Of a DNA stretch of 58,011 nucleotides, positions 40,739 through 58,011 are shown piece by piece (the first letter of the stretch is position 1; every line of letters begins with the position of its first letter). The position numbers and the translations under genes were made by a program. The stretch is from Bondarzewia mesenterica. Its lineage: Eukaryota; Basidiomycota; Agaricomycetes; Russulales; Bondarzewiaceae. The stretch spans positions 1 through 58,011 of the forward strand of contig SGPL01000174.1 in NCBI GenBank assembly GCA_004802705.1. Reading direction: 5' to 3'. Under the pieces are notes generated by a model. That model was not told the DNA's origin and did no database searches. It saw nothing but the letters and a program-made list of their open reading frames with translations.

Positions 40739-43700
40739 ATGCCTGCTTCGTCTGGGTCATTCGTGCCCAATCGGCAGTGGAACCAGCAGGCGTCGTATAA
40801 CTTCGATACGTCCGAGCAGGTTGGTGGAGACCAACAGTTGTACGACCCTTCTACCGTTCCGTCCAATTCGTCATTCAACTACCCTTCATACACCGCCTCT
40901 CAACTTTCTTACACCTCTGGCCAGCAGCCTCATCCATCTCAGTCACAAACTCAATATGCACCGTACAGAATCGATGGGTACGCGGAGCAGCATGGTACGG
41001 CCCAGCCTATGCTCTCACAGCCTCATAGCTCCTCGAGGAGCACTGCACCCTCATTTTACCCACAGGCGTCGTTACAGGCTTACCCTGCTCATCTTCCACC
41101 GTCATACCAGACTCAGCCAGCGCCGTCTGACAGCCAAATGAGCATTCCTCACCGGCCGGCGCTAGTCTTAGCTCCCTCCTTTGTATCTTCTCAATCGTTC
41201 ACCTCTTCCTCGCAGACTCCTTCCTCCGGTTTCCAATCCTCCTCTTCCGCGACATCTTCGAATTTTTCCCCGTACAATTTCCAAAGCCATCCCACAGGTG
41301 TCCCGTCGCATCCCCAAGACTTGAATTCCTTGCATACGACGTCGGGAGACCATGCCGAAGGGACGTTGCATCCATACAAACGTCAACGTTCCGAGGAGGT
41401 TTACGATATTGATGGAGAGGATGGAAATGGAAGCGCGGGCCTCGAGGCCGAACAAGCTCTCCATATGGAGGCTATTGCGCCGGGTTCAGCGGAGGAACCC
41501 AGGTTGAAGAGAGCGTGTACACGGTGTAAAGGGCTCAAGGTACATTTTCGGCGAGATCCTACTGTCTGGTTCCTCATCTCCATGCCCTCTATTGACCCAA
41601 ACGCGACGCCAACAATAGGTCCGATGTGACTTCAAAGATGATCAGGACTCATGTGAACGCTGTCTGAAGGGGACCCACGAGTGTGTGATTCCTGGCCGCA
41701 AAAAGAGACGTCCACCACCGTACGTATTGAACTTTTTCCTTAATTACATTATCTCACAACTAATCCGCCAATCTATTTACTGCATCTCCCTTGGTACGTA
41801 CTCAGAAAACGCGAAGTCCTTCTGAACAAGATCCGTGAACAAGCGACCCAAATTGCTGACCTCATGTCTCAACTTGAGGTGGTGCAGAACGCGGACCGGA
41901 ATACTTCGCGCCTCGCCAACGCTCTCCCGCAAGATCTCGCACGTTCGTCACTGAGCTCGCCGGGCAGCCTGACGCTGTCAAGCACTTCGGGTGATTATCA
42001 GTCTTCATCTTCCCAGATCTCTGTCACCGATACGCAAACGTCGCGCGAGAACCTGGAGTGGATCGCCGCTGCTCGCCGTAATCTCGAGGCCTTCGGCGGG
42101 TTCATCGGGATGGGCGGGGCGAATATGAGTCGGAGTCTGTTTACGGAGGAAGATCCCGAGGACTCGTCTTCAAGCGAGGATGAGTATGGTGTTCATGTAC
42201 AGGACACGGACAGCGATGAGGAAGACGAGGCAGTGGCACGTGCGAGGGAGCTTGTACGGCGCGCCGAAGCGCCAGCAGGGCACATTCCGAAGAAGCGGGA
42301 CCCAGGAGGAACGAGTGGAAAGGAGAAGATGTCAAGCATCCCGACAGAGGCCAGCCCGTTTGGGCTTATGGCGACGCTCAGTGTAAGGCAGCCGAAGACT
42401 AAGCGATCGAGTAGTGTTGTTAGTGATAGGCCAGATGTAGGTGTCGCAAATGAAGACTTCTTCAGGCCAAGTGAGTCGTACTCGATTCATCTTTTCCATC
42501 GTGGTATCCGGAATGTTAATGACAGCCCTCCGCTCCAGCGTTCGATCCGGGGTCTATGAAGATGAGCCTCTACCAACATGCGCCGCAGATTCTGAAGAAG
42601 AACATCATCACTCCTGCGGAAGCTGAGAAGTTGTTCAAAATGTAAGCTGCTCTTCTTGCTTCCAGATTCGGCTGACTTACCTTCGCGCCCATTTCAGATA
42701 CTTTGACTGGATGAATATATCTGTTTCTCTTCTTGATCCCGTACTCTACACAGCTCAGCAAGTACACGGCCGGTCCCCTTTCCTATTCACTGTTAGTAAG
42801 TTGACGAATGCCCTCTACCCCAGTCGTAACAATTCTCATCTAATTCTGTTGCTCTAGTTTGCGCCATCGCATCTCGGTACTATTGTGAGCGTCCAGACCT
42901 CTATCCCACACTAGTCGAATATGCTCGTCAAGAAGCTGGCGCTGCCTTCACTGGCGGGCCGAAGCGTGTCGAGACTGTGCAAGCCTACATTCTTCTGAGT
43001 CTCTACCCCATCCCAGCGCAGCGCTGGGACGAAGACCGGTGTTGGATCTACCTCGGGCAGGCCATCCGCGTGGCGCTTGACATGAATCTCTATCATCCCA
43101 ACACAGCCAAGCCGCAGAACGAGCAGCACGCACGAGAGATGCTCAATCGCACACGTGCATGGCTGAACTGTTTCAACCTGGACAGGTCGATGGGTTCGCA
43201 GTACGGCAAGGTCGCCGTGATCCGCAATTCGGACTACGTCGCGAATCACTCGACACTATGGTGGGAATCATCCAAGTACAATATCGAGGCATTCGACATC
43301 CATTTATGCGCGTACAACGCCGAGTTGAGGGTCATGTACGACTTTATGGGGAAGGTATATAGCGACGTCAACCATCCAACTGGGCTCAACAAGGTAAGCG
43401 CAGGTTCGACCCTCGACTCTGCTGGGGTTCATCGGTTCGATGACATTTGCCGTTCTGGTCGCTAGGAAATCGATATCGAACAGCTTGCAACTGAAACGGA
43501 TGACAAACTGCAGTCGCTGAGGACGGAGTGGTTCGCTCGGCTGGCCAAGATGGATGAAACGAACGCTCAGCATCATTTCCGTACCGGTCTTCTTCGGCTG
43601 GCATACAGTTACGCTCGCCTGATCACTCTTTCCTACGGATTCCAGCATGCGTTCAGCAAGAGTGACGCCGAAGATCACACACTGTTGACTAGGGTGAAAA

Positions 43701-44955: not shown

Positions 44956-47900
44956 CTAGTCTAGGGACTCTGCTACTACATACAGATCCCCGCTTTTTTC
45001 TATCTCCTCCAGCATGATATTACTGCGGTCACACATGCCACGGAACACACCGTCTCCTCTCTGGAATAAGGCCGTTGGTGTATCAAACTCCTGTGAATTT
45101 ATCAGTTTTTCTCCTGCCAAGATCTACTGATAAAGCCAGGAACATACCGCAACTTGGCCCTCGTTGAGAACTAATATACGGTCATATGATAATATTGTCG
45201 TCAGGCGGTCTGGGAGACAAGGATGAGCTCATGGGTCATAGTGCGGTAGTCGTAGGAAATAATTCACGAGCTATGCAAAGAAGAGTGCGGTCGTGGAATT
45301 GTGTTTGAATTGTCCTTTGTATCTTGCTATCCGTCTCTAGGTCCACCGACGCGCTGTACAAAAGTCAAGTTCGATCGAATGCCTTCATTTTATTAAGGTT
45401 TCTGAGAATTGACGTGGCTTCATCGAGCACGACGACCTGGCTATTTTTCACCAATGCGCGCGCAAGGCTGAGAAGAGATCGTTCGCCGACACTGAGATTG
45501 GCACCTTCGCTTTCGATGACGGTGTCCAAGTCAAACCGGCTGACACAAGCCAGGGTGGTTTCGCCCGTTGAGACGTTATCAAGCGAGCTGTTATTGCTTG
45601 AGGAGACCAAGTATGATCGTCGGAGGGCGTCCCATAAATGCGCGTCATCGTAGAGAGAGGGGGGATCTAAATTCGAGCGGACAGTTCCTGAAGCATGGCT
45701 TGCTGAGTATATCGCACGAAAGACATCATTAACCATCTTACCACTGAACAAAAGAGGCTCAATGAGTCCAAGAAAAGTTGAGTACGCGCAGGACAGCTTC
45801 AATGAATTGGATCCACTTACATCTTGAGGAATTATGGCAATCTTGGAGCGCAAATCCCTCAGCCCCAGAGTAGAGATATCGATGCTGTCAAAGCCACTGG
45901 TTATACACGCTCTCTGCTTTTCACATGGGAAATGAAGCCCACCCATCGACACTGATAGATCCAGAGTTCAGCTCCACGATGAGGTACAGCACCATCATCA
46001 ACGATGACTTTCCTGCCCCAGTCCTAGACAACTCGTTAGCATCAAAGGGCTTTAGAGTCTGTCAACGTACCTTCCAACTACTCGAATTTTTTCCCTGGCC
46101 TTGATGCTAAGCGAGACACTGCGGAGGATGTTTGGCAATCCTTGTCTGTAGTTCATGCTAACGTCTGTGAACTCAATCGCGCCGTTCGAGAGCCATTCAG
46201 GTGGAGGCTTGACATCCTCCTTCTCATACGGTGCTTCCCGAGCGACTGCGTCCCCTTCGCTGTAATGAACAACTACACGACAGTAGTTGACGTCAGCTTC
46301 AAATCACTTGAGCATATCGATTTGTTCGTACTTCTCTCAACGGAGCTCATATAATTCTGAAAAGGCCTTCAGTCCGTAGAGTTTGAGCTAATTTAGGAAT
46401 AAGGCCTACCTCCACTTCGGCCGACTGTCGAGTCAATAGTCCACAGAGCTGGGTGAGCGTCGCTGGCATGGATTGTTATTAAAATCAACGAGGAATCATA
46501 GTATGAAACTTACTTGTGTAAGTCAAAACGAGGCCAATTTGAGCTGTATTCAGAGCTGAAGCCCCGGCAACGGCAAGCATGGCGACCTACGTAACGAAAG
46601 GCTTGAATGAGAATGAGCGAAAGGATACATGAGTGAACGGGGATGAACAATGAACACCATGCAAGCCCCGAGAAAATCGAGTCGAATAGCGAGCCATCTG
46701 TCAAGATGTCAAGTCGGACACCAGCTTTAGAGCATTAAATCGACCACCTCTGATTTGTGACCGTCAAGAACAACGCTCGATTTTCCAAATCGATGTAGTA
46801 CGTGTTGCCTTTAACGAATCTAGGCAGCTCTCCGTAGCTGCGTATGGTCGAGAGTCCTGTCAAGGACTCCGAGAAGTGAGCGTAGAGAACAGAGCGTAAC
46901 ATGGCATCTGTCCGTGAATTCAGCAATAGAAGGGTCTCGGTTTCTGGACACAACTGACGAAGTCGCTTCAGCTCGCGCGCGCTTTCTCTGTAGAATGCTG
47001 CGAATTAACTGTAGCCGATGAAGATAGCGAAGGCGGCAATGACTGAAAGGTGATAAGACTCCTGAGAGGGATCATCGGAAACCAATAACTCACGAAAATA
47101 GGGTTCCAATATCGAGATGATCACAACGACGCCGATAACATTAGCCAAGGTGATAGCAACTACAAAGAATTATGGATAAGCATCCCAGAAAATGTCTCAT
47201 CAGCTGTATGCCTTACAGAGTCTCATAGGTACTGAGTTTATCACAGAGTTCAGCTCTGATCCTCTCCACTTAATCTGACTTAACCATGCATCCGTGCTGC
47301 ACGTGACATTGCATCTGCAGAATATAATCCACATGTACATCCAATTGAAGTCCTTCCTATCACCCTACATCACAAGTCCTCAAGCAAAAATGCTAAATAT
47401 GAAAAATTAAAGGAAACCAGATACCCATTCATTTGCTGCTACCAGTGCCCACCAACAGGTGATCATCATAAGCGAACAGCAAAAAAAAAGAGATAAGTGA
47501 TCCCCCGACGACATAAGCCAGTAGTGCAGCGGCAGAGTCATCGCGCCCCCGGGTTGCAAGCAGAGCCCGAGGGACAAGGGCGGCAAAAATAAGATAACCA
47601 AGAATGAGGGCGGTGCCCTCATAATAGTGGTTAAACTATTAAGAACAGATACTACACTTGATCTAAGCCAAAAGGCCAGAGTGGTAAGGATTTACGAATG
47701 TCTGGAGAGTCGTTTTATAGAAAAAGAATCGCGCACGGACCGGAAGATGCAAAGCAAACATGGTACGGGGACCACGAGGAACGCGCCGACGCGCCTGAAT
47801 ATTGACGTGGAAGACACGTGTCGGTAGATTAGTCATGTCACGTGATGGAAGCCATCCGAGTGGCTCAGGCTGAGCGTCAAAACGTTGCTCTGAAAGGGGT

Positions 47901-50900
47901 TTCTAAAGGTTTCTAACGGTGACTACTGCAAGAAAGTTGCATAGAATACGAAGTTTCACACAGGTATGTATCATATGTTTTATTCTTCGCGATGTAGAGA
48001 GTCCCAAAGTTACAGACGCCGACGCGACTTGACGCAGCGGCTTTCGACTTTGTAAGTACTCGCGTGACTCATGAGGACTTCATAAGCCGAAGTTTTCTGG
48101 CTTAGATCAAGTGTAGTATACAGAGGCCCGCGAGGTCTGACATGGACACACACTAGACGCCTGAGAATTGTAGCACAGCTCATAACTACGACGCTGCAGT
48201 CAAAGTAAGTACTTTATGTTAAATCGTCCGACTGCCGCAACATAAACTCACACCACTCTGCCAGTGGAAAAACAATCCGAGTCGAAGAAGGATCGGGAAG
48301 AGAGAGAACACGCACACGCGTCACAGATCAACAAAAAAAAAGAAATTGACCATTGCACTACACTGAAGAATATCATATACCGTAAAAATGTAAATACAAA
48401 ATCGACAGGGTACGAGGGAAAACGCGCCATCGCCACCGCATTACCAGCCTCTCATAGATATGTATATACCATCGCTCGACACTGAGGCTATCTCAACATA
48501 TTCACACTGTATACGCCCAATCGCCACGCCCACGCTCACTGCGCCATCGTGGTATAGCTCGGTGGCGGCGGCGATGTTGGGCGGCTTGAGGTGGGGTTCG
48601 CGTAGTAGGCGCCAGCACCCGGCGCGCTGTACGTCTGTTGCTGGAACGGAGGCGTAGGCAATGTCACCTGGGGTTCGGGGTGGTACGCCGCGTACTGCGC
48701 GGACGGTTGTTGTGTGGTTATGGGGGTATATTGCGTCAAAGGCGGAGCGTACTGCGCGACTGGCGATGACGAAGAAACATATGGAGCTGCTACTGCTGAT
48801 GGGTATTGAGCTCCAGCCGCTGAAGGAGGCTGATAATATGCAGTCACTGCCGCACCACTCGTCTGTGGCGATACTGGCACTGCCGCAGCGAATGCCGGAG
48901 TCGGGGGGGCTGACATCTGCTCCGGGACATATGGCACGTACGGGTTCGACGATGATGTCTGACCACGCGTCGCTGTTGGGGTATATGCGGTAGTATTCTG
49001 CAAAGTGGCTGGCGCCACTTGTATCTTGATAAACCGCGAAGGAACGGCTTACCAGGCAACTGATTGTCAATGGCTATGAAAGCACTTGGGCATTAGTTTC
49101 GACGAAGTGGATTACTGCGCTGACAATACGAGACATACAGTCGAAGTCTTTGCCGAACACACTGATGATTCGGCCTAGTGGCTACAATCATGACCGTAAG
49201 AACTGGTCGCGATCAAATGTCGAACAACGAACGTACCCTGGTATCGAAGAATGACATTGGAGCGAAGGAAATGTTTCTGAGAACATGATGGTGCAGATTT
49301 TGAGAGACATGGAATGACAAGACATCCATCGAAAGACCTCTGTTGAAGCATGTTAGATGATCTGAGTGTGTATAAGACGGCATCGACGTACAAAGCAAAC
49401 GTAAAAAGGGCTTGTGCAATACCGAGGCAGGCATAGAGCGTCTGGTAGAAAGATGATGGGCGATTCCATCTACTGCGAGGCTAAAGTCAGTATGAATTTT
49501 GCGGATAGGATCCGGTCATGTACTTCGCTGGCCACCAGACCAATGTATACGAATTCATAAGCTGACTTCCTTGCATGAGGACCATGAACAGAATGATCAA
49601 GGCCCAGTGATCAAGCCATTTCCCGCCATGAGATACGCCCAATTGACTTGGTGAAAAATGGTAAGAGGAACATCAGCACGAGATAAATCCGAAGTATAAG
49701 TGAGGTCGTACTTCTCCAAGGCACCGAACCCGTCTCCCGCGTCTCTGCAACGACCAGCCTTCCCTCGAGTTTCCCAGAACGCCCGTCATTTTTCTGCTCC
49801 AACTTGCGCCTCACTTCCCCGACATCTACTTTCTTGACCGTACTTTCCTTGTTCTAATCTTGCTCTTCCTGCTGCTCTGTTTGTCCGCCACCGAACTCCC
49901 TGCTGAGCCGAGCAAACTCGCCGCTGCGAGCCAGAAGTTCTTGATACGTCCCCTGTTCAGCGACATGGCCATTGTTGAGGGCATAGATGTAGTCGCACTG
50001 GGGAACGAAGTGCAGTGCATGCGTCACGAGAATGACGGTTTTGCCTTGTCCACGGAGAGCACTAACGATGGCATTGGTGGAGAGAGAGCGACCAACGTGC
50101 GCGTCGATTGTTTTGAATATATGAACGGTGGTGCTACGAGGATTGTATGATAGACTTGCCGGCTGAGAGGGGATCGTCGAAGATGACGATATCGGCGTCG
50201 AAGTACAAAGCCCGAGCAATACTCACCTGTGACATCGTGCATAAGTATTGTAGACACTAATCGTGAAGGGATTCGTACCCGTTGCTTTTGTCCACCGCTG
50301 AGGTTGATCCCCTTCTCCCCAATCTACAATATGTTGTGATTCCAACTCAGACTTCGCACAAAGGCGCAGACGCACTAACCTCAGTCATATCACCACCAGG
50401 AAGCACCTCCAAGTCTGTGAGCAGACAGGCATATTCAATAACCTTCCAGTATTTCTCCTCGTCGAACGGCTGTCCAAACAAAATGTTGTCTCTCTAAGAT
50501 ATATTGTCAATATAAACATATCAGGGAGCTACAAGAGAAAGGCCGTACGAGGGAGGCATTCTGCACCCAAGCAGTCTGCGGACAATATCCCACTCGTCCA
50601 CCAAACGTGACCTGCCCGCTCACCTTCCTCATTTCCCCAATCAAGCCTTGCAGAAGACTTGACTACTCGCCCCAAGGTAAATGAAACGAGTCAGCCTTCC
50701 CAGATTTCTTCTCAAAACGATCTGTTGTAAAAAAAAAACACGTACCTTACCACTTCCTACGGGTCCCACAACGGCCGCGATTTCCCCCCTAGGAATTTCC
50801 ATTGAAACATTCCGCACCTGGAATGGCCGTCGCTGCACAGGCAGGGTGTCCACCGAAACATCAACGGTCTGTTTCTCCTTGCCGCCCTTGCCATCATTCT

Positions 50901-53380
50901 TCTCGTCCGCAGCGCGGCCTTCCTCCCACTCGAACGTCGCATCCACCACTTTTATCCCAAGCTCCTGCTCGAGAACAGTGGTAATCGGCGTCTCGGACAT
51001 CGTCTCCGCGCTGAACACGTTCGCGACACGGACGAGGGCGTTGTCAGCGTCTGTGATGGCAGAAAGCGCGCGCGGGAGGAACATCATAGGTTGACGGAGA
51101 AGCTGATCACGATGAGATTGAGAGATTCGTGTCTTGCAATCAGCAGAAAAAAAGAGAAAAAAACTTACCTGGAACAGACTGAGTGACGAGAATATGATGG
51201 CGGAGTCGAACTCTTTCGACGTGGCTGTGTACATGACGAAGGACAAGCTGGCTGCGAGAACGGGGATGGAATACGCAAACGCGATGCTAGAGTTCATAAA
51301 CTGAGGACGACGTGGTAAAAATGATCGTCCGGCATGATAGACGTACTTTGCAGACCGGGCGTTCTGGATCTTCCTCACACCCTTAAGTTCATTTTTACGG
51401 ATGTGGAAGATGCGTTGCAAGAGCGGGAGCTCGTACGTGAAATACTTGACCACGCGCATCGCTCCTTTGCGCATCAAAATAAGGAAATTTTAAACCAAAA
51501 TTCCTTATAGAGCCATAACCCGGGCATTGCGCCTACCTAGAACCTCCAAGAGAAGCCTTGCCCGACGATCTGTCCATTTCATGGACTCTTTGCGGATCTT
51601 GAATTGCATGGCATGACGCGTTCCTGAAGGGGTGCGATGAAAGGAAAGAGGGAGAAGCCAGCGAGAGCTGAAGGGCCAAGCCAAGCGAAGAGTATAGAAT
51701 TGAGATGTGAAGAAAGAGATGAAAGCCAAGATATGAACGACTTACTTGGACGCAAAGGATGATAAGACAGACAATGACCTGAACAGGCGCAGTCCATGCT
51801 AAAATGTGTGGTGTTCAGCACAGAAAGGGTAATCTCACCAAACATAAGACAAACCAGCATGCTTCAAAATTATGACAAAGTCAGGCATAACTTCAGTTCA
51901 AGCCTGCAATATCGCGAGCTAGACAGTGACTCACAAACCATTGCGCGCAAGCATCCACACGGCTGACCTACACTCAACAATTCGTTCTGGATCGATAACC
52001 AAAAGTGGTGCGAAGACACGTACGTCTGATGATATATGATTGACGATCTCTGCATTTGACAGTTGGGTCCGCGCCTTTGGCGTGAATAATCCGCCGCGTT
52101 TGTAAATACACGACGTGAGCGCACCCCGCGCGAGCACGCCCGTCGTCATAGAGCGCCAGAAAAACTGATGCGTAAACGCACATATGTTAAGTCGATCGGA
52201 TGCAAACATATGATACCCTTGATGACTGTATGAATATACCTGGTGCTGGCACACACTCGTGAGAGCCGTAAGGCAGAACAGGCCGATGGCCATTCCGACG
52301 CCTCGCCTAATGTTAGGCGGCTTTTTGCCTTCGCCTTGTGCTGCGAGAGTTTCTTTCCCGAAGTTGATGATAGCCTAGACGGTGCTCGACTATGAATAAG
52401 CAAATCGTCAAACAAGGTAACAGTGTGTAACCTTGACGAGAATAGGGCCCATGAGTTGCACAACATTCCCCAGCACCTGCAAAGGCGTCTTCTTTAGCAC
52501 TCATCACGGAAATAGCAGGGAAAACGAGACACAGACCTTGAAACACCCACCAATCCAGAAGCTCCATCCAAACATATCATTCAAAGCCCACGCGAGACTC
52601 GCCTGTTTTCTCCCTCCACGTTCTCTCCAATCCGCCTCGAGGGCTTTCCGCCGCGCTCTTCGTCCGCGTCCATGGCCCAATGCGCGAACGCTCCACACCG
52701 TACGTCTCACTACGCCAGGATTAATTTCACCGCTTGCCAGTCGCGCATTCCAGTCTTCGGCCTCTTGCATGCGACGAGCCCATGCCTTGTCGAACATTTC
52801 AGAAAGACCATGAACTTCACGAGACTCGTCAAGTTTCCAGAGATCAGTCGCCTGCAGTGTGCGTTGATACCCAAGAACCTACAAACGAAGGTAAGAAGCA
52901 GTGAAGCTTGACGCAAGAACTGGAGAAGTACCATAATGTCATTAATCCATGTGTATGTCAACTGCGATAAGATAGACGTGTTGACAAGCGGGATGACCTA
53001 TCGCCGCGAATCAGCTTCTGTGACAATACTGGTCGTAAAATATGGACAAGAGACGTACTTCTGCCTCATCCAAAGATACAGGAGCCGGCGGAGGTGGGTT
53101 CTTAGGCCGCCTATATAAAGCAATAAGTGACCAACGCGTCGATGCCGCTGAGGCTGGACCGACAGTGCGAGGCGGTCAAGTCTGGCATCAGGACTCACCA
53201 GAGCTGCCACCATCTGGTACGAAACCTGGATCGCTGCACACCAGTTTCCAGATTCACCTTTGGCGAGTTCTTGTCCTGGGTTACTACAGGCAGAGACACT
53301 CCTTTTTTTCTCGTCCATGCCCAGTTATTGAAAGTGAATAAAGGATCGTGCCCTTCAGTCCAAGCCTTGCCCACGCGCAT
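44956..53380 (-). CDS. ABCC-type (YOR1-like) ABC transporter, possibly decaying
   Basis: A full-length two-TMD two-NBD transporter of the multidrug-resistance (ABCC) family, closest in layout to yeast YOR1. The N-terminus is near 53380 (MRVGKAWTEGHDPLFTF). VIPLVNTSILSQLTYTWIND lies at about 52990-52930, and DLWKLDESREVHGLSEMF follows. NBD1 has Walker A VVGPVGSGK (about 50750), the signature NLSGGQKQR (about 50285) and Walker B IVIFDDPLSA. TMD2 starts near 49640 (WALIILFMVLMQGSQLMNSY) and reaches GRIISVFGKDFDSIDNQLP at 49053. It continues PMRLFAITLANVIG after a 1821-bp intron (47232-49052). NBD2 has RTGAGKSSLMMVLYL, LSVGERSLLSLARAL and VVVLDEATASVD, ending at 44956. Lesions: an in-frame TAA at 47005-47007 and a lost AG acceptor near 50108. 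Position next to the NIS synthetase suggests siderophore export. Confidence 0.85.
47495..47688 (-). ncRNA. U2 spliceosomal snRNA
   Basis: The minus strand reads GGCCTTTTGGCTTAGATCAA followed by GTGTAGTATCTGTTCTTA, the near-universal 5' domain of U2, including GUAGUA that pairs with the intron branch point. A stem-loop TGAGGGCACCGCCCTCA follows, then the Sm site ATTTTTG, then GC-rich 3' stem-loops. The 5' end is placed about 12 nt before GGCC by analogy. The 3' end is approximate. A TATA box lies about 25-31 nt upstream. This is a functional-looking gene nested in an intron of the ABC transporter on the same strand. Confidence 0.93.
47713..47719 (-). promoter_or_regulatory. TATA box of the U2 snRNA gene
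   Basis: TATAAAA on the minus strand, about 25-31 bases before the predicted U2 5' end, the expected spacing for an RNA polymerase II start. Confidence 0.7.
48098..48119 (+). pseudogene. 22-bp U2 snRNA fragment in inverted orientation
   Basis: TGGCTTAGATCAAGTGTAGT plus AT is identical to the U2 5' domain but on the plus strand, about 410 bp from the intact gene. No Sm site or stem-loops follow, so it is a remnant. Confidence 0.85.
48536..48997 (-). pseudogene. Orphan terminal exon of a Pro/Tyr-rich protein
   Basis: After a TTTGCAG acceptor at 48998 a frame of about 153 codons runs to the stop at 48536. Its composition is strongly biased (VPYVPEQMSAPPTPAF, AQYAPPLTQYTPITTQQ) and it ends PPPPSYTTMAQ, with a PPxY motif that binds WW domains of Rsp5-type ligases. 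The preceding exon of the ABC transporter is out of phase with this frame, so it is not an alternative end of that protein. No upstream exons are present, so it looks like a displaced 3' gene fragment. A simple low-complexity chance frame is possible. Confidence 0.45.
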
Positions 53381-54071
53381 TCCGCCCACCCACTTAAGTA
53401 CGTAAATTTCCTACGAGCTCTCGTAACCTTCAATCATCATCGATGGTATTGACGTATGGCAGCTCAAAGTCAGATCCTCCTGAATCAATAAGCAAAGCCG
53501 GACCACGCAATGTCCGACCGACTCGAACACGGACGGTGGGTCTCGGGTACACGCAGTCAATCAGAGGGTAACAGGTACCCAGACCAATGTGGCGAAAGCA
53601 CCTGTGGTGCTTCTAGTGCATGTGAAGAGGGTCAAAGAGAGAGCGGATGAGGATGTTCAAACGGTTGTATTCGTTTCAGAATGGGGTTGTTTCGCCACCA
53701 TGGAGAGCGGGGACGACAAGGCCCGGAAAAATATATGCGGTGTGACGGAAAAGAGGAAGAAAAAAAAGGAGTTCCAGATGGAGAAGGAACAGGTCCACGC
53801 AAGGCTACGCAAGGGCTCGCATGAGTCGCGTCGAACTTCCTGTCACCACAAAACTTGCCAAGCGTTGTGATGATTACAGGCCAAATTTTCGGCGCGTCGC
53901 CAGGCATTTGGGGCTAAAGATTATCAGATAACTCTTAGATAACTTTGCCATAACAGTTGATCTCTCTGATCTTTCCAATTCCCGGATCCAGATTCGGAGC
54001 CTCTCCCAATTCATGTCCGTTGAAATCCTTTCCCTCGGCGAGTCTCACAGACCCGTCTCACACGTTCCACA
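53381..54071. promoter_or_regulatory. Divergent promoter of the ABC transporter and NIS synthetase
   Basis: 691 bp between two start codons. It holds a palindromic GATA-type site at 53921-53931 and another GATAA at 53938-53942. Short open frames in it are not convincing genes. Confidence 0.7.
53921..53931. promoter_or_regulatory. Palindromic iron-GATA-factor site
   Basis: TTATCAGATAA contains ATCAGATAA on the plus strand (53923-53931) and ATCTGATAA on the minus strand (53921-53929). Both fit ATCWGATAA, the consensus of fungal iron regulators of the SreA/Urbs1/Sre1 family. It is about 140 bp upstream of the siderophore synthetase start. Confidence 0.7.
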
Positions 54072-56351
54072 ATGCCCATCCTAGGATCTCTTCCCCCAGC
54101 GCAGCGCGCTGCCTTTGCGACCTCTGCCCGTCTCTTGTCCTGCCTCGTCACCGAGTCTCTCGTCCGTGCACTCTTTATCCCATTCGAGGGTTTCGAAGCT
54201 GTCGGCGTCTGCGTCATTCTCTCCGGAAGCACTTCGAAGAAACAGCCGAAAGAATGCCCGACATACTCGTCTGATGACCTGTTCGCCATCATCCCTTTGA
54301 GACACATTCCGGTCTTCAAGCATGATGAGTCCGACTCCCGAGGTCACGAAATCGGATTGCTGGATCCCCTAGACATGCTGCCGCTCGTTTTCGAGATCGA
54401 CAGCTTCGACAGCGTCGGCTCTACCCCTGAGGTCAGGATCTATCTCTGCGCAGAAGAGTTCATACTTGATTGAGTCGTTGTGATGTTGAACAGCACGCCG
54501 ATCTGTCTGCAGCAATTCTGCGCAAGCTCTCCGGGTCTGGCTGGTCTATCTCTAATTCAACAACGCTCACCGTATCGACGAGCCCGGTTATTCTCTGGAA
54601 TAAGTTTGGGATCAGTGTTGGCCTCGATCCCGCCCTGCGTGCCGATATTTCAGAGGAATTCGCCAGCGCTGTAATTTGGCAGAAATATTCCTACGAGCAC
54701 CCTGCGCGTGCCCCATCCCTCACTTCTCCCAGTATTGACTGGGAGCAATCTATTGTCGAGGGACATCCCACGCACCCAGTATGATTACTTTCTCTTGTAA
54801 TTGCGTTCGAGAATGGCTAAGCTCTCTGATTCACAGATGCACAAAACCCGTGCCTTTCTATCACCAATCCCAACAATAACTCCTGGGACCTATGACCTTT
54901 ACAACCCACGCGTTCGCCTCGTCGCCCTCCCTCGAACGAGCTTAAACATCACCGGAGACTTCGAAAATGATACCAAAGACGTGCTCGATGGCGCTGCCAA
55001 GAACGCAAAGAAACCGCTTGACGTTCCCGAGGGCTTCGTTGTCGTTCCGGTGCATGAGCTTCAAGTATACCATATTCAGGAGAAGTTCCCAGAGGCAAAG
55101 ATCTATCCCGAGGAGTTCAGCGTGTCTGCGCGAGCGCAGCAGAGCATCCGGTTTGCACCCCCCCGTCCTCCCTTCCTCCCTTCGCTCTCAAGTTTTTCAA
55201 TTTACTGACGCGTTATTCTTTAGGTCTATGATCCTCCCAGGCACGCTCACCAACACGTCCCTTAAACTCGGTGTCGGCATCAAGCTGACTTCGGCCGTCC
55301 GAACCATTTCCCCCGCGTCTGCGTACCTCGGCCCGCGATTCTCCTCGCAGGTCGTTCCCGCGCTGACTATGAATCACAACATCCTCACGGTTGCGAAAGA
55401 GCTCTCAAGCGTCGTGCACAATCACCCCGATAATGAGATCGCGAAGCACTGCGCAGCGATCGTCCGGGAGTGTCACGAGAACCTGAGTGAGGAACAGCGT
55501 GGAGAACGGTTGATCGTATGCACTTCTCTGGTGGAGAGCGGCCACGAGGGCCAGGACGCGGAGAATAGCGTGCCAAGTGTTGTTCGCGTTTTTCGTCTGG
55601 ACACTGAAGAGAAACGCCTTGCTTGGTTGGACGAGTACGTATTCCTCTCCCTTCCCTTTTTTCCTTCTTAGTTCCTAAGCTCACTCGTGGCCAATATCGC
55701 ACAGGTTTGTCCGCGTATTTTTCGCGGCCTTCCTTCCGCCCATGCTCATCAACGGTGTCGGCTTCGAAGCGCACCCGCAGAATACCCTCGCGCGATACAC
55801 CCTCACCGACCCGCCCCGACTCACGGGCTTCATCATCCGCGACTTTGGAGGCCTGCGCGTGCATCCGCCGACGCTTCTCGCCTCGACCGGTGTTGCGCCT
55901 GACATTGCGTCTGGACACTCCATCATCGCGGACACGATGGACGATGTCTACGCACGCATGTACCACACCGTCGTGCACAACCATCTGCAGCAACTCGTGC
56001 GCGTACTTGACCTGCATTACAGCGGCAAGGGGTGGGACGTCGTGCGCGCGCGGTTGAGGGAGGCAGTACCGAGCGGCCACCCGCTGGAAAAGGCCTGGTT
56101 AGACGAGGAGGCGAAGACCGTGCCAGGAAAGTGCTTCTTGAGGATGAGGATGGTAGGGATGTATAGACATGTCAGTTATTCGTTCTTTTCCTCCCTCTTC
56201 GCGCTTGTCCTTTCACAACTGTTGACTCTGTATCTTTGTTGATCTCGGACAGCACCTGCACTACCCATTCCCGAACCTCTTGCTTCACACCGGGGTCAAA
56301 GAAAACAGCTTGCCCGTAAGCCCTACAGAGGAAAAAGGCAAAACAGTCTAG
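54072..56351 (+). CDS. NRPS-independent siderophore synthetase (IucA/IucC family)
   Basis: Six exons, 54072-54431, 54494-54778, 54837-55150, 55224-55634, 55705-56170 and 56253-56351, give about 644 residues, the usual size. Family members adenylate a carboxylate (often citrate) and couple it to an amine or hydroxyl group to make a siderophore without a peptide synthetase. Landmarks: AAFATSARLLSCLVTESLVRA at the N-terminus, EGHPTHPMHKTR (ATP-binding loop, split by intron 2), GVGIKLTSAVRTISPASAYL, TMNHNILTVAKELSS, INGVGFEAHPQNTLARYTL, GFIIRDFGGLRVHPPTLL and YRHHLHYPFPNLL. All expected basic and His contacts appear retained. In fungi the rhizoferrin synthetase of Rhizopus is of this family. The product here is unknown, and the bacterial-type origin suggests an old transfer. 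Its divergent ABC transporter and GATA site fit iron regulation. Confidence 0.92.
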
Positions 56352-56521
56352 GCGCTCTAGATGAGCCAGTTTTAATCTAGGGTAGGGAGAAACCCGAGGG
56401 TGATTTTTCTTCTTCTCTGTCGTAGGAAGTCGCATCACTATGAATCTGTAAGCGCAGCTACGCAAACTTGTACATGTACTTGAACTCGGCTTGGACAGAG
56501 AATGGAAGAAAACGGAATTGG

Positions 56522-57700
56522 TCAAAGGAGATCGTCGGATTCTTGAATAATTTTGTTCGAACGTTGCGGTAAGACCTGATCCAGGTTGGCGGGACCGCTT
56601 CCTGCAATGGTGCCTCCAATGCCTCCCACATTCGACCGGGATCGAATAGGCCCTTGGACCTCAGTAGAAAGATGAAACCATCGACGAACGTCGGAAAAAT
56701 CGGACGTAGTTGTCAACAAAATGCTGGGATCGTGCATGCGTCTTGTGTCAGGGGAAAGATTATGTCCGGACACTGCGAATCGCAAATGCCGACGACCTAG
56801 CACGTATTCGGGAAACCCCGTGGCAGTCGAAGCTCCTCACGACCGATGAGTGTATAAATATTGTAGAAGGTTACCGACATTAAGTACACGCATCCCATTC
56901 GATCGAAGACTTGGCAGGAAACTTTTTTTTGTTGTTGCACAGAACGATCCATGGCTGCTGTGGGGCTTACCTACGATCTCGGGGCACGGTATGCCGTGGA
57001 GTCAATAAAGCTATAAGAGATGAAGGTTCAAGAATCACAGGAAGGTTTGGTTAGTTTGAGACGTTCCTTACTTCTTTCTGGGGCGAGGAAGTATAATTGG
57101 AATTGCCATCAGTTTCCGCCGGACTCGTTTGTTCTGATGGACTATTCAATTTCAATGACGCACCACCAAAATTCGTCGTAGCGTGTCGTCACACAATCAG
57201 GAGCAAAAGGAGACGCGAAACATGCACGCCAAGGAACTCCGCAGCCTCCATGAAGGCGCTGGGTACTAGGTACTCGCAAGCTACATGAGAATCAACAACA
57301 GAGGAAGGAACGTTCAAAATTTCTACATCGGTGCGCGGCCAGCTTACCAGGACCGTGGGATAATAAAGAGCGTTAATGGAGTACCAAGCGGCGACCCTCT
57401 TCAGCATGACGAAGAAGGATGAGTTTAATTGTGAGGAATGAATAGCCAATATCGCGACAGCAAAGCTTAGCGATTCGGGCAGTCGGATGGCTGGGAAGGT
57501 CGATGGCGCAGCACAGAAGCCCCATATTGCACCGTGAGCTATGTGAGGGTGGTGTGATCTGAGACGTGTATTACTTCACAGCGTGAACGAAGTTGAATGG
57601 CGCACAGAAAATGCTGACGACTCCTACTTACCGGAGAAAAACGTGACAAAACACGGCTGACAGTTGCTCGTACATGTGTGAGCATGTGCAGTGATCAAAG
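56522..57700 (-). CDS. Unresolved multi-exon gene, probably a membrane protein
   Basis: Pieces on the minus strand look coding: PAIRLPESLSFAVAILA and FFVMLKRVAAWYSINALYY near 57490-57360 (hydrophobic), FGGASLKLNSPSEQTSPAET ending at a GTAAGG donor near 57066, and a last piece ending RSNVGGIGGTIAGSGPANLD...IIQESDDLL with the stop at 56522. I could not chain all of them in phase and the start is unknown. A basidiomycete membrane protein with a hydrophilic tail is the simplest reading. It lies tail-to-tail with the siderophore synthetase and has an iron-GATA-type site upstream (57864-57872), so membership in the same regulon is possible. Confidence 0.35.
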
Positions 57701-58011
57701 GGGTAGATGACGCTAGACAGAATAACAAGGAAGAGGTGATGCTAAAGAGAGGTAATGCTAAAGAGAGGTAAACGACGATGGGAGACGGTGAGAGGGTAAA
57801 CGGCTGTAAACGGCATCTTAGGGAAGATGATCAATCTCGTGGGTCGATAGATAAGATCAAATCTTATCAGATGGGAAAGCTAGCCCGCTTGTAGATCATC
57901 ATCATGACACCGACCCCTGCTTCAGCCTGCGATCGATGCCCTCTAGTCGAGTCCGAAAGTATATTTACCACTTCAAAGGCAATGGCCCATCCCTACCCTC
58001 TCGATTTCCCT
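57701..58011. other. Right edge, presumed promoter of the unresolved minus-strand gene
   Basis: Contains a short tandem duplication GGTAATGCTAAAGAGAGGTA near 57737-57770 and the GATA inverted repeat. No gene was seen before the window ends. Confidence 0.4.
57850..57872. promoter_or_regulatory. GATA inverted repeat with iron-type site
   Basis: GATAAGAT (57850-57857), CAA, ATCTTATC (57861-57868) form an exact 8-bp inverted repeat. TTATCAGAT at 57864-57872 is ATCTGATAA on the minus strand, the iron-GATA consensus. It is upstream of the unresolved minus-strand gene. Confidence 0.55.

What the first reader, a model, noticed from the sequence alone, without database searches (positions are those of the whole stretch)
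53381..57872. Candidate iron-regulated NIS siderophore locus in a basidiomycete
An IucA/IucC-family siderophore synthetase is divergent from a YOR1-like ABCC transporter, with a consensus iron-GATA site between them and a second one beside the next gene. Synthetase, exporter and shared iron control in one place would form a compact siderophore system. NRPS-independent siderophore synthesis is well known in bacteria and in Mucoromycota (rhizoferrin), but I know of no characterised basidiomycete case.
Basis: partly seen in the sequence, partly recalled or inferred. Interest (0 to 1): 0.87.

Follow-up and report, generated by a model that had tools for sequence, protein, structure and literature searches.

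The report
Paired mushroom citrate-siderophore synthetase genes
A wood-decay mushroom carries one half of a conserved pair of IucA/IucC-type enzyme genes that would likely make a citrate-based iron-scavenging molecule under predicted iron-responsive control, while the transporter gene beside it is broken in this genome; similar gene pairs are already in print for other mushrooms, but their product is still unknown.

Summary
The gene is real: an intact 644-residue IucA/IucC protein (NIS1; deposited as EW146_g4489 of Bondarzewia mesenterica). The two types form two supported clades and share a contig in 45 of 74 named NIS2-type rows compared. Both predicted structures match bacterial NIS synthetases, best the citrate-using AcsD. 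The iron-GATA idea gains support: ATCWGATAA lies 140 bp before NIS1 and 280 bp before NIS2, occurs seven times around FTR1/FET3 of this genome, and an SRE/Urbs1-type GATA factor is encoded. The ABC neighbour fails as exporter here: its frame is broken at several places and a repeat sits in an intron. Its linkage to NIS genes is seen in relatives, but the same transporter also occurs in lineages without a listed synthetase. Family searches found no siderophore NRPS or ornithine monooxygenase, so this pair may be the only siderophore route. Adjacent mushroom NIS pairs were published in 2022: a known, uncharacterised kind. Substrate, product, regulation and export remain untested.

The parts
54072..56351 (+). 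NIS1, IucA/IucC-family synthetase gene, 644 aa, six exons (54072-54431, 54494-54778, 54837-55150, 55224-55634, 55705-56170, 56253-56351)
   Evidence: model; identical to deposited EW146_g4489; PF04183 residues 201-423, PF06276 residues 453-610; pLDDT 92.4
53921..53931 (.). palindromic iron-GATA site TTATCAGATAA, 140 bp upstream of the NIS1 start codon
   Evidence: motif rate; the same 11 bases stand at C621:9964 near FTR1
53381..54071 (.). 691-bp intergenic stretch between the divergent ABC and NIS1 gene models
   Evidence: the ABC start is that of my own model and is uncertain
57864..57872 (-). second iron-GATA site (ATCTGATAA on the minus strand), 280 bp upstream of the NIS2 start codon on the joined path
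57806..58011 (+). end of the contig, 206 bp identical to the NIS2 promoter at C108:35409-35204; NIS2 itself is at C108:35062-32636 (minus), 666 aa, deposited as EW146_g4821
   Evidence: identity; NIS2 model and deposited protein
44977..53380 (-). YOR1-like ABCC transporter gene, disrupted: frame changes inside conserved exons near 51.6 and 49.6 kb, in-frame stops in a linker exon (within 49713-50108) and in a later transmembrane exon (within 46702-47157); the 5' end is uncertain
   Evidence: translated comparison with Heterobasidion P0198; Pfam; deposited model EW146_g4488 is 987 aa, with PF00664 as its only listed Pfam domain
47346..49023 (.). multicopy repeat lying inside an intron of the ABC gene

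Best explanation
NIS1 is one member of a conserved pair of intact IucA/IucC-type synthetase genes (NIS1, NIS2) that is predicted to make a citrate-based polycarboxylate siderophore and likely to be repressed by an SRE/Urbs1-type GATA factor when iron is plentiful, whereas the ABC transporter gene beside it is disrupted in this assembly. Predicted working: each enzyme activates a carboxylate with ATP as an acyl-adenylate and joins it to an amine. One paralogue would add the first citrate to a diamine or amino-acid amine and the other the second citrate, giving a rhizoferrin- or staphyloferrin A-like product; this division of labour is inferred. Under iron starvation the GATA repressor would leave ATCWGATAA upstream of both genes and of FTR1/FET3. 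Export would need another transporter; an apparently intact relative of the ABC gene exists on contig C57, but its role is untested. Shown here: gene models, domains, predicted folds, clades, motif positions, the disruption, and the regulator's finger and cysteine layout. Inferred: adjacency of NIS1 and NIS2 in this species, substrate, product, order of steps, regulation and transport.
Against: No expression or chemistry data. The NIS1-NIS2 adjacency in this species rests on a 206-bp contig overlap plus relatives; as assembled, C108 has a repeat next to NIS2 instead. 29 of 74 NIS2-type rows had no same-contig NIS1 row, and in Russula compacta, R. earlei and Lactarius deliciosus the two types lie on different contigs, so tight linkage is not essential. 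The structural ranking may partly reflect ligand state: the IucA entry 5jm7 scores only 27.1 and 27.5, no better than type C enzymes, and by sequence the best PDB match of NIS1 is AsbB. In Armillaria, siderophore signal was seen whatever the added iron (PMC10700112, abstract) and the main biosynthesis proteins were not detected in proteome or secretome (PMC12973365, passages), which does not favour simple iron repression there. Rfs of Rhizopus needs no second enzyme (PMC10700112), so two synthetases are not required for rhizoferrin.
Confidence: 0.65

Rival explanations
1. The two paralogues act separately: each makes its own carboxylate product (for instance NIS1 a rhizoferrin-like compound by itself, as Rfs does), and the pair is a tandem duplication kept for two products rather than two steps.
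For: Rfs makes rhizoferrin alone (PMC10700112). Each type also occurs without the other on the same contig in part of the rows (29 of 74 NIS2-type rows unmatched), and the one Armillaria row listed is NIS2-type (P0116).
Against: Pairing on one contig across Russulales, Agaricales and Phallomycetidae rows (orders from recall) and 17 positions with clade-specific residues, several beside conserved motifs, fit a kept division of labour better.
Confidence: 0.3
2. The whole reader model holds: NIS1 makes the siderophore and the adjacent YOR1-like ABCC transporter exports it.
For: ABC and NIS rows share a contig length in 21 of the 29 Russulales/Agaricales ABC rows entered, Bondarzewia's own included, and carry consecutive locus tags in Bondarzewia, Tricholomella and Tetrapyrgos. 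In other species the exporter role remains possible.
Against: In this genome the ABC frame is broken and a repeat sits in an intron. In Peniophora sp. CONT, Dendrothele bispora and Mycena maculata the ABC row and the NIS rows are on different contigs. The orthologue tree follows fungal orders and includes Polyporales, Boletales, Hymenochaetales and Heterobasidion, for which no NIS row was among those listed.
Confidence: 0.08
3. The synthetases serve a non-siderophore role, for example making a citrate amide that does not work in iron uptake.
For: No product is known, and the IucA/IucC assignment is by homology only.
Against: The best-matching folds are siderophore synthetases and the promoters carry the motif that marks the iron-uptake locus of the same genome.
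Confidence: 0.1
4. The 206-bp identity is a true duplication of a promoter, and NIS1 and NIS2 are not neighbours in this species.
For: As assembled, C108 continues past the shared stretch into a repeat, not into the window.
Against: The identity is 100% over non-coding DNA between genes 43% alike, and it ends exactly at the contig end, as an assembly overlap does; several relatives hold the two with consecutive locus tags.
Confidence: 0.2

Closest known systems
Adjacent IucA/IucC core gene pair of Agaricales (Hypholoma sublateritium, Coprinopsis cinerea; split in Stropharia rugosoannulata), PMC8874372 (passages)
   Same: Two IucA/IucC + FhuF genes side by side; H. sublateritium and C. cinerea rows are in both my NIS1-type and NIS2-type lists
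   Different: Russulales host; broken ABC neighbour; iron-GATA sites examined here
NIS Cluster 1 of Armillaria and other Physalacriaceae, PMC10700112
   Same: IucA/IucC gene with ABC transporter genes nearby; an Agaricus bisporus cluster is named as similar
   Different: One synthetase in that cluster as described, with C2/MRP-like and Frag/DRAM/Sfk1 genes; I recognised no C2 gene by eye among the C108 models (no Pfam test was run on them); the Armillaria protein listed is NIS2-type (P0116)
Rfs, rhizoferrin synthetase of Rhizopus/Mucor
   Same: Fungal IucA/IucC synthetase; six exons reported for Rfs (PMC10700112), as in NIS1
   Different: Rfs works without a second synthetase; no Rfs sequence was compared here
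SfaB/SfaD of staphyloferrin A
   Same: Two related type A' synthetases for one citrate siderophore (type from PMC10700112; the two-step roles are recalled)
   Different: Bacterial; not compared by sequence here
AcsD (achromobactin) and IucA (aerobactin), type A NIS synthetases
   Same: Best structural matches of both models
   Different: 14-18% identity; bacterial; the best sequence match in the PDB is AsbB instead

Membership tests
NIS synthetase superfamily (IucA/IucC) | PF04183 plus PF06276 in one protein | tested here: met
   both proteins above both cut-offs
NIS synthetase superfamily (IucA/IucC) | overall fold of solved NIS synthetases over nearly the full length | tested here: met
NIS synthetase superfamily (IucA/IucC) | conserved ATP/carboxylate site motifs (GHP.HP, S.R, K...R, E.H.QN, RD..G, late K; functional labels recalled) | tested here: met
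   a lysine of the first motif (46 of 48 NIS1-type rows) is arginine in 36 of 36 NIS2-type rows
Type A / A' (citrate-using) NIS synthetases | nearest relatives are citrate-using enzymes | tested here: inconclusive
   structure favours AcsD and ATP-bound IucA, NCBIfam best is FslA far below cut-off, but one IucA entry ranks low (5jm7) and the strongest sequence match in the PDB is AsbB
Type A / A' (citrate-using) NIS synthetases | adenylates citrate | not testable with these tools
   needs enzyme assay
Rhizoferrin synthetase (Rfs) | groups with Rfs in a tree | not tested
   no Rfs sequence was obtained; PMC10700112 reports that cluster-1 proteins group with it
SRE/Urbs1 iron-GATA regulon | ATCWGATAA in the promoter | tested here: met
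   motif source PMC2610380 (passages)
SRE/Urbs1 iron-GATA regulon | genome encodes a two-finger GATA factor with a four-cysteine region between the fingers | tested here: met
   C465; layout from PMC2848559 (passages)
SRE/Urbs1 iron-GATA regulon | transcripts rise when iron is scarce | not testable with these tools
   no expression data
YOR1-like ABCC exporter | full-length open gene with two membrane and two ATPase domains | tested here: not met
   frame changes and in-frame stops against the Heterobasidion protein; parts of the domains are still recognisable. RNA evidence for unusual splicing is lacking

The most novel reading that the evidence does not exclude
In Bondarzewia a two-enzyme citrate siderophore system has replaced the widely conserved basidiomycete hydroxamate (NRPS plus ornithine monooxygenase) pathway, runs under the same SRE-type iron switch as reductive iron uptake, and has outlived the decay of its ancestral ABC neighbour.
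Probability: 0.35. Interest if true: 0.68.

Novelty: new member of a known kind. Interest (0 to 1): 0.5.

Why it matters
The mushroom siderophores named in the passages I saw (coprinoferrin, basidioferrin and a Ganoderma family) are NRPS hydroxamates. A conserved, iron-linked NIS pair in mushrooms would add a carboxylate class, and a species in which the NRPS route was not found would be a clean place to look for its product. The broken transporter also warns against reading gene neighbourhood as export function.

Tried and rejected
Rejected: a single-synthetase locus (NIS2 found); the ABC gene as a working exporter; the two PF13434 hits as ornithine monooxygenases (they look like Baeyer-Villiger/FMO-type proteins by eye); the three Condensation-domain hits as siderophore NRPS (two aminoadipate-reductase-like genes on C136 and C460 and one acetyltransferase-like, judged by eye).

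Weak or failed: the tree with bacterial outgroups had very long branches, and the Actinomycetospora frames I took look wrong, so I use only the fungal tree for the split (both quick trees). No Rfs sequence was reached: one search listed 120 of 220 proteins and one search listed 120 of 126, and every named row shown is, to my knowledge, an agaricomycete. My small gene finder fits the NIS genes well but gave an untrustworthy ABC model; the C57 paralogue model is from the same finder. Promoters of other fungi could not be fetched, so the GATA sites are not tested for conservation. Absence of the NRPS route rests on six-frame family searches of a draft assembly in 844 contigs. The frame changes in the ABC gene are read from translated alignments; unusual splicing is not excluded without RNA, but the in-frame stops lie within aligned exon sequence.

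Counting limits: one search used 74 named NIS2-type rows of the 120 listed and a typed table of named NIS1-type rows. Unnamed rows, the query, the fused Amanita phalloides row and one named row (P0118) were left out of the NIS2 side, and some lower NIS1 rows were left out of the other, so 45 may be an undercount. One search used 29 of the 120 ABC rows (those I take for Russulales and Agaricales); the other 91 were not entered. A shared contig is read from equal contig lengths and is not adjacency except where locus tags are consecutive.
Full report
What is there. The window is the whole contig C84 of a 33.09-Mb fungal assembly. Its synthetase gene matches the deposited protein EW146_g4489 of Bondarzewia mesenterica exactly. 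Six exons with regular splice sites give 644 residues. Pfam finds IucA_IucC (99.4 bits, cut-off 25) and FhuF (51.8 bits, cut-off 25.2).

The second synthetase. A PF04183 search of the whole genome found two places, one here and one on contig C108. The latter is NIS2 (666 aa, EW146_g4821), 43% identical to NIS1 over 625 columns. The last 206 bases of the window are identical to C108:35409-35204, just upstream of NIS2, and the identity ends exactly at the contig end. On the joined path NIS2 starts 1,801 bp after the NIS1 stop, in the same direction; between them I found only two minus-strand frames of 71 and 72 residues and no gene model. On C108 a repeat abuts the same stretch, so the assembly is ambiguous there and adjacency in this species is inferred.

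Relatives. The named rows listed by searches with each protein are, to my knowledge, all Agaricomycetes (120 of 220 listed; 120 of 126 listed). Locus tags are consecutive in Hericium (g1072/g1073), Hohenbuehelia (003560/003561), Tricholomella (009540/009541), Sphagnurus (003703/003704), Asterophora (002797/002798), Clathrus (004880/004881) and Sphaerobolus (37525/37526). Against this, 29 of the 74 were unmatched. Among them are Russula compacta, R. earlei and Lactarius deliciosus, where the two types lie on different contigs, and Armillaria, for which the one row listed is NIS2-type. A quick tree of 84 fungal rows splits the two types with SH-aLRT 100, and 17 positions differ between the clades in at least 85% of rows on each side. 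An outgroup tree was not reliable.

Enzyme class. AlphaFold models are confident. Foldseek's first 50 rows for each are all NIS synthetases. VIA-align 2 ranks AcsD, ATP-bound IucA and SbnC above AsbB, DesD, AlcC and IucC for both, but another IucA entry (5jm7) scores no better than the latter group, so ligand state may weigh in. By sequence the best PDB match of NIS1 is AsbB. The citrate (type A) reading is favoured but not settled. NCBIfam's best family for both is FslA, far below its cut-off.

Iron control. ATCWGATAA is the motif of the Aspergillus SreA regulon, and in-vivo sites of Ustilago sid1 fit it (PMC2610380, passages). In this genome it occurs 732 times against 223 for the reversed control. 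It lies 140 bp before NIS1 as a full palindrome and 280 bp before NIS2. As a positive control, the 11.4 kb around FTR1 (PF03239) and a FET3-like gene (recognised by eye) hold 7 strand-hits at 6 places where 0.25 are expected, including the same 11-base palindrome. A gene on C465 has two GATA fingers around a four-cysteine stretch, as described for SRE, Urbs1 and Fep1 (PMC2848559, passages). In Ustilago, Urbs1 governs both the permease/oxidase genes and siderophore genes (PMC10672361, passages). No expression data exist here.

The transporter. The ABC gene is the orthologue of a Heterobasidion ABC protein. Translated comparison with that protein shows frame changes inside conserved exons near 51.6 and 49.6 kb and in-frame stops in a linker exon and a later transmembrane exon. 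A multicopy repeat (47346-49023) lies in an intron. The deposited model has 987 residues and no listed ATPase domain. NIS1 next door is free of such damage, which speaks against poor base calling. In relatives the ABC gene is often linked: 21 of 29 Russulales/Agaricales ABC rows entered, Bondarzewia's own included, share a contig length with a NIS row, and Tricholomella has ABC, NIS1, NIS2 in a row. In Peniophora sp. CONT, Dendrothele bispora and Mycena maculata the ABC row is on another contig than the NIS rows. The orthologue tree follows fungal orders and includes Polyporales, Boletales, Hymenochaetales and Heterobasidion rows, for which no NIS row was among those listed. An apparently intact relative lies on C57 (model of about 1,400 residues from my own gene finder). 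So the transporter is an old neighbour, not a proven partner.

Other siderophore routes. The coprinoferrin and basidioferrin clusters each have an NRPS and a lysine/ornithine monooxygenase as core genes (PMC12617850, passages). Family searches here found only aminoadipate-reductase-like and acetyltransferase-like Condensation hits and FMO-like monooxygenases (judged by eye). The NIS pair may thus be the only siderophore route of this species. This is a negative result in a draft assembly.

What is known. PMC8874372 (passages) reports adjacent IucA/IucC core genes in H. sublateritium and C. cinerea, and expression of the genes of both clusters in S. rugosoannulata mycelium. PMC10700112 (outline and abstract, parts 1-4 of 8, section 25 and a word search) describes two NIS clusters in Physalacriaceae, with ABC genes in cluster 1, type A' placement and siderophore signal irrespective of added iron; the words tandem and GATA do not occur in its main text. 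PMC12973365 (passages) did not detect the main biosynthesis proteins in Armillaria. In the listings I saw no purified basidiomycete NIS enzyme or product; the library lacks most subscription papers.

Verdict. The locus is a member of a published but uncharacterised kind.

Noticed in passing
window 47346-49023: Multicopy repeat (77-92% alike over its longer matches elsewhere in the genome) inside an intron of the ABC gene, leaving the flanking exon ends in place.
   Followed up: partly
C108:35410 onward (L004): A repeat with ambiguous bases abuts the NIS2 promoter; its end recurs at 77-100% identity on several contigs, suggesting a mobile element and a possible mis-join.
   Followed up: partly
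C621:8146-14732 (L047): Two FTR1-like genes and a FET3-like gene with seven ATCWGATAA strand-hits in the 11.4 kb examined, a dense iron-GATA locus.
   Followed up: partly
C465:12718-13632 (L049): SRE/Urbs1-type GATA factor with two fingers and a four-cysteine stretch; two further ATCWGATAA hits (14679, 14862) lie upstream of its fingers, so it may regulate itself.
   Followed up: partly
C136 and C460: Two aminoadipate-reductase-like (LYS2-type) genes in one genome, nearly alike by eye over the frame seen.
   Followed up: no
P0002 (Amanita phalloides), P0191 (Asterophora parasitica): Deposited models that seem to run NIS1- and NIS2-type parts together (1089 aa), or NIS2 with a C2 domain (1130 aa); real fusions or annotation joins.
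   Followed up: no
window 42830-43465: Open frame with a fungal-specific transcription factor domain (PF04082), part of a gene next after the ABC gene.
   Followed up: no
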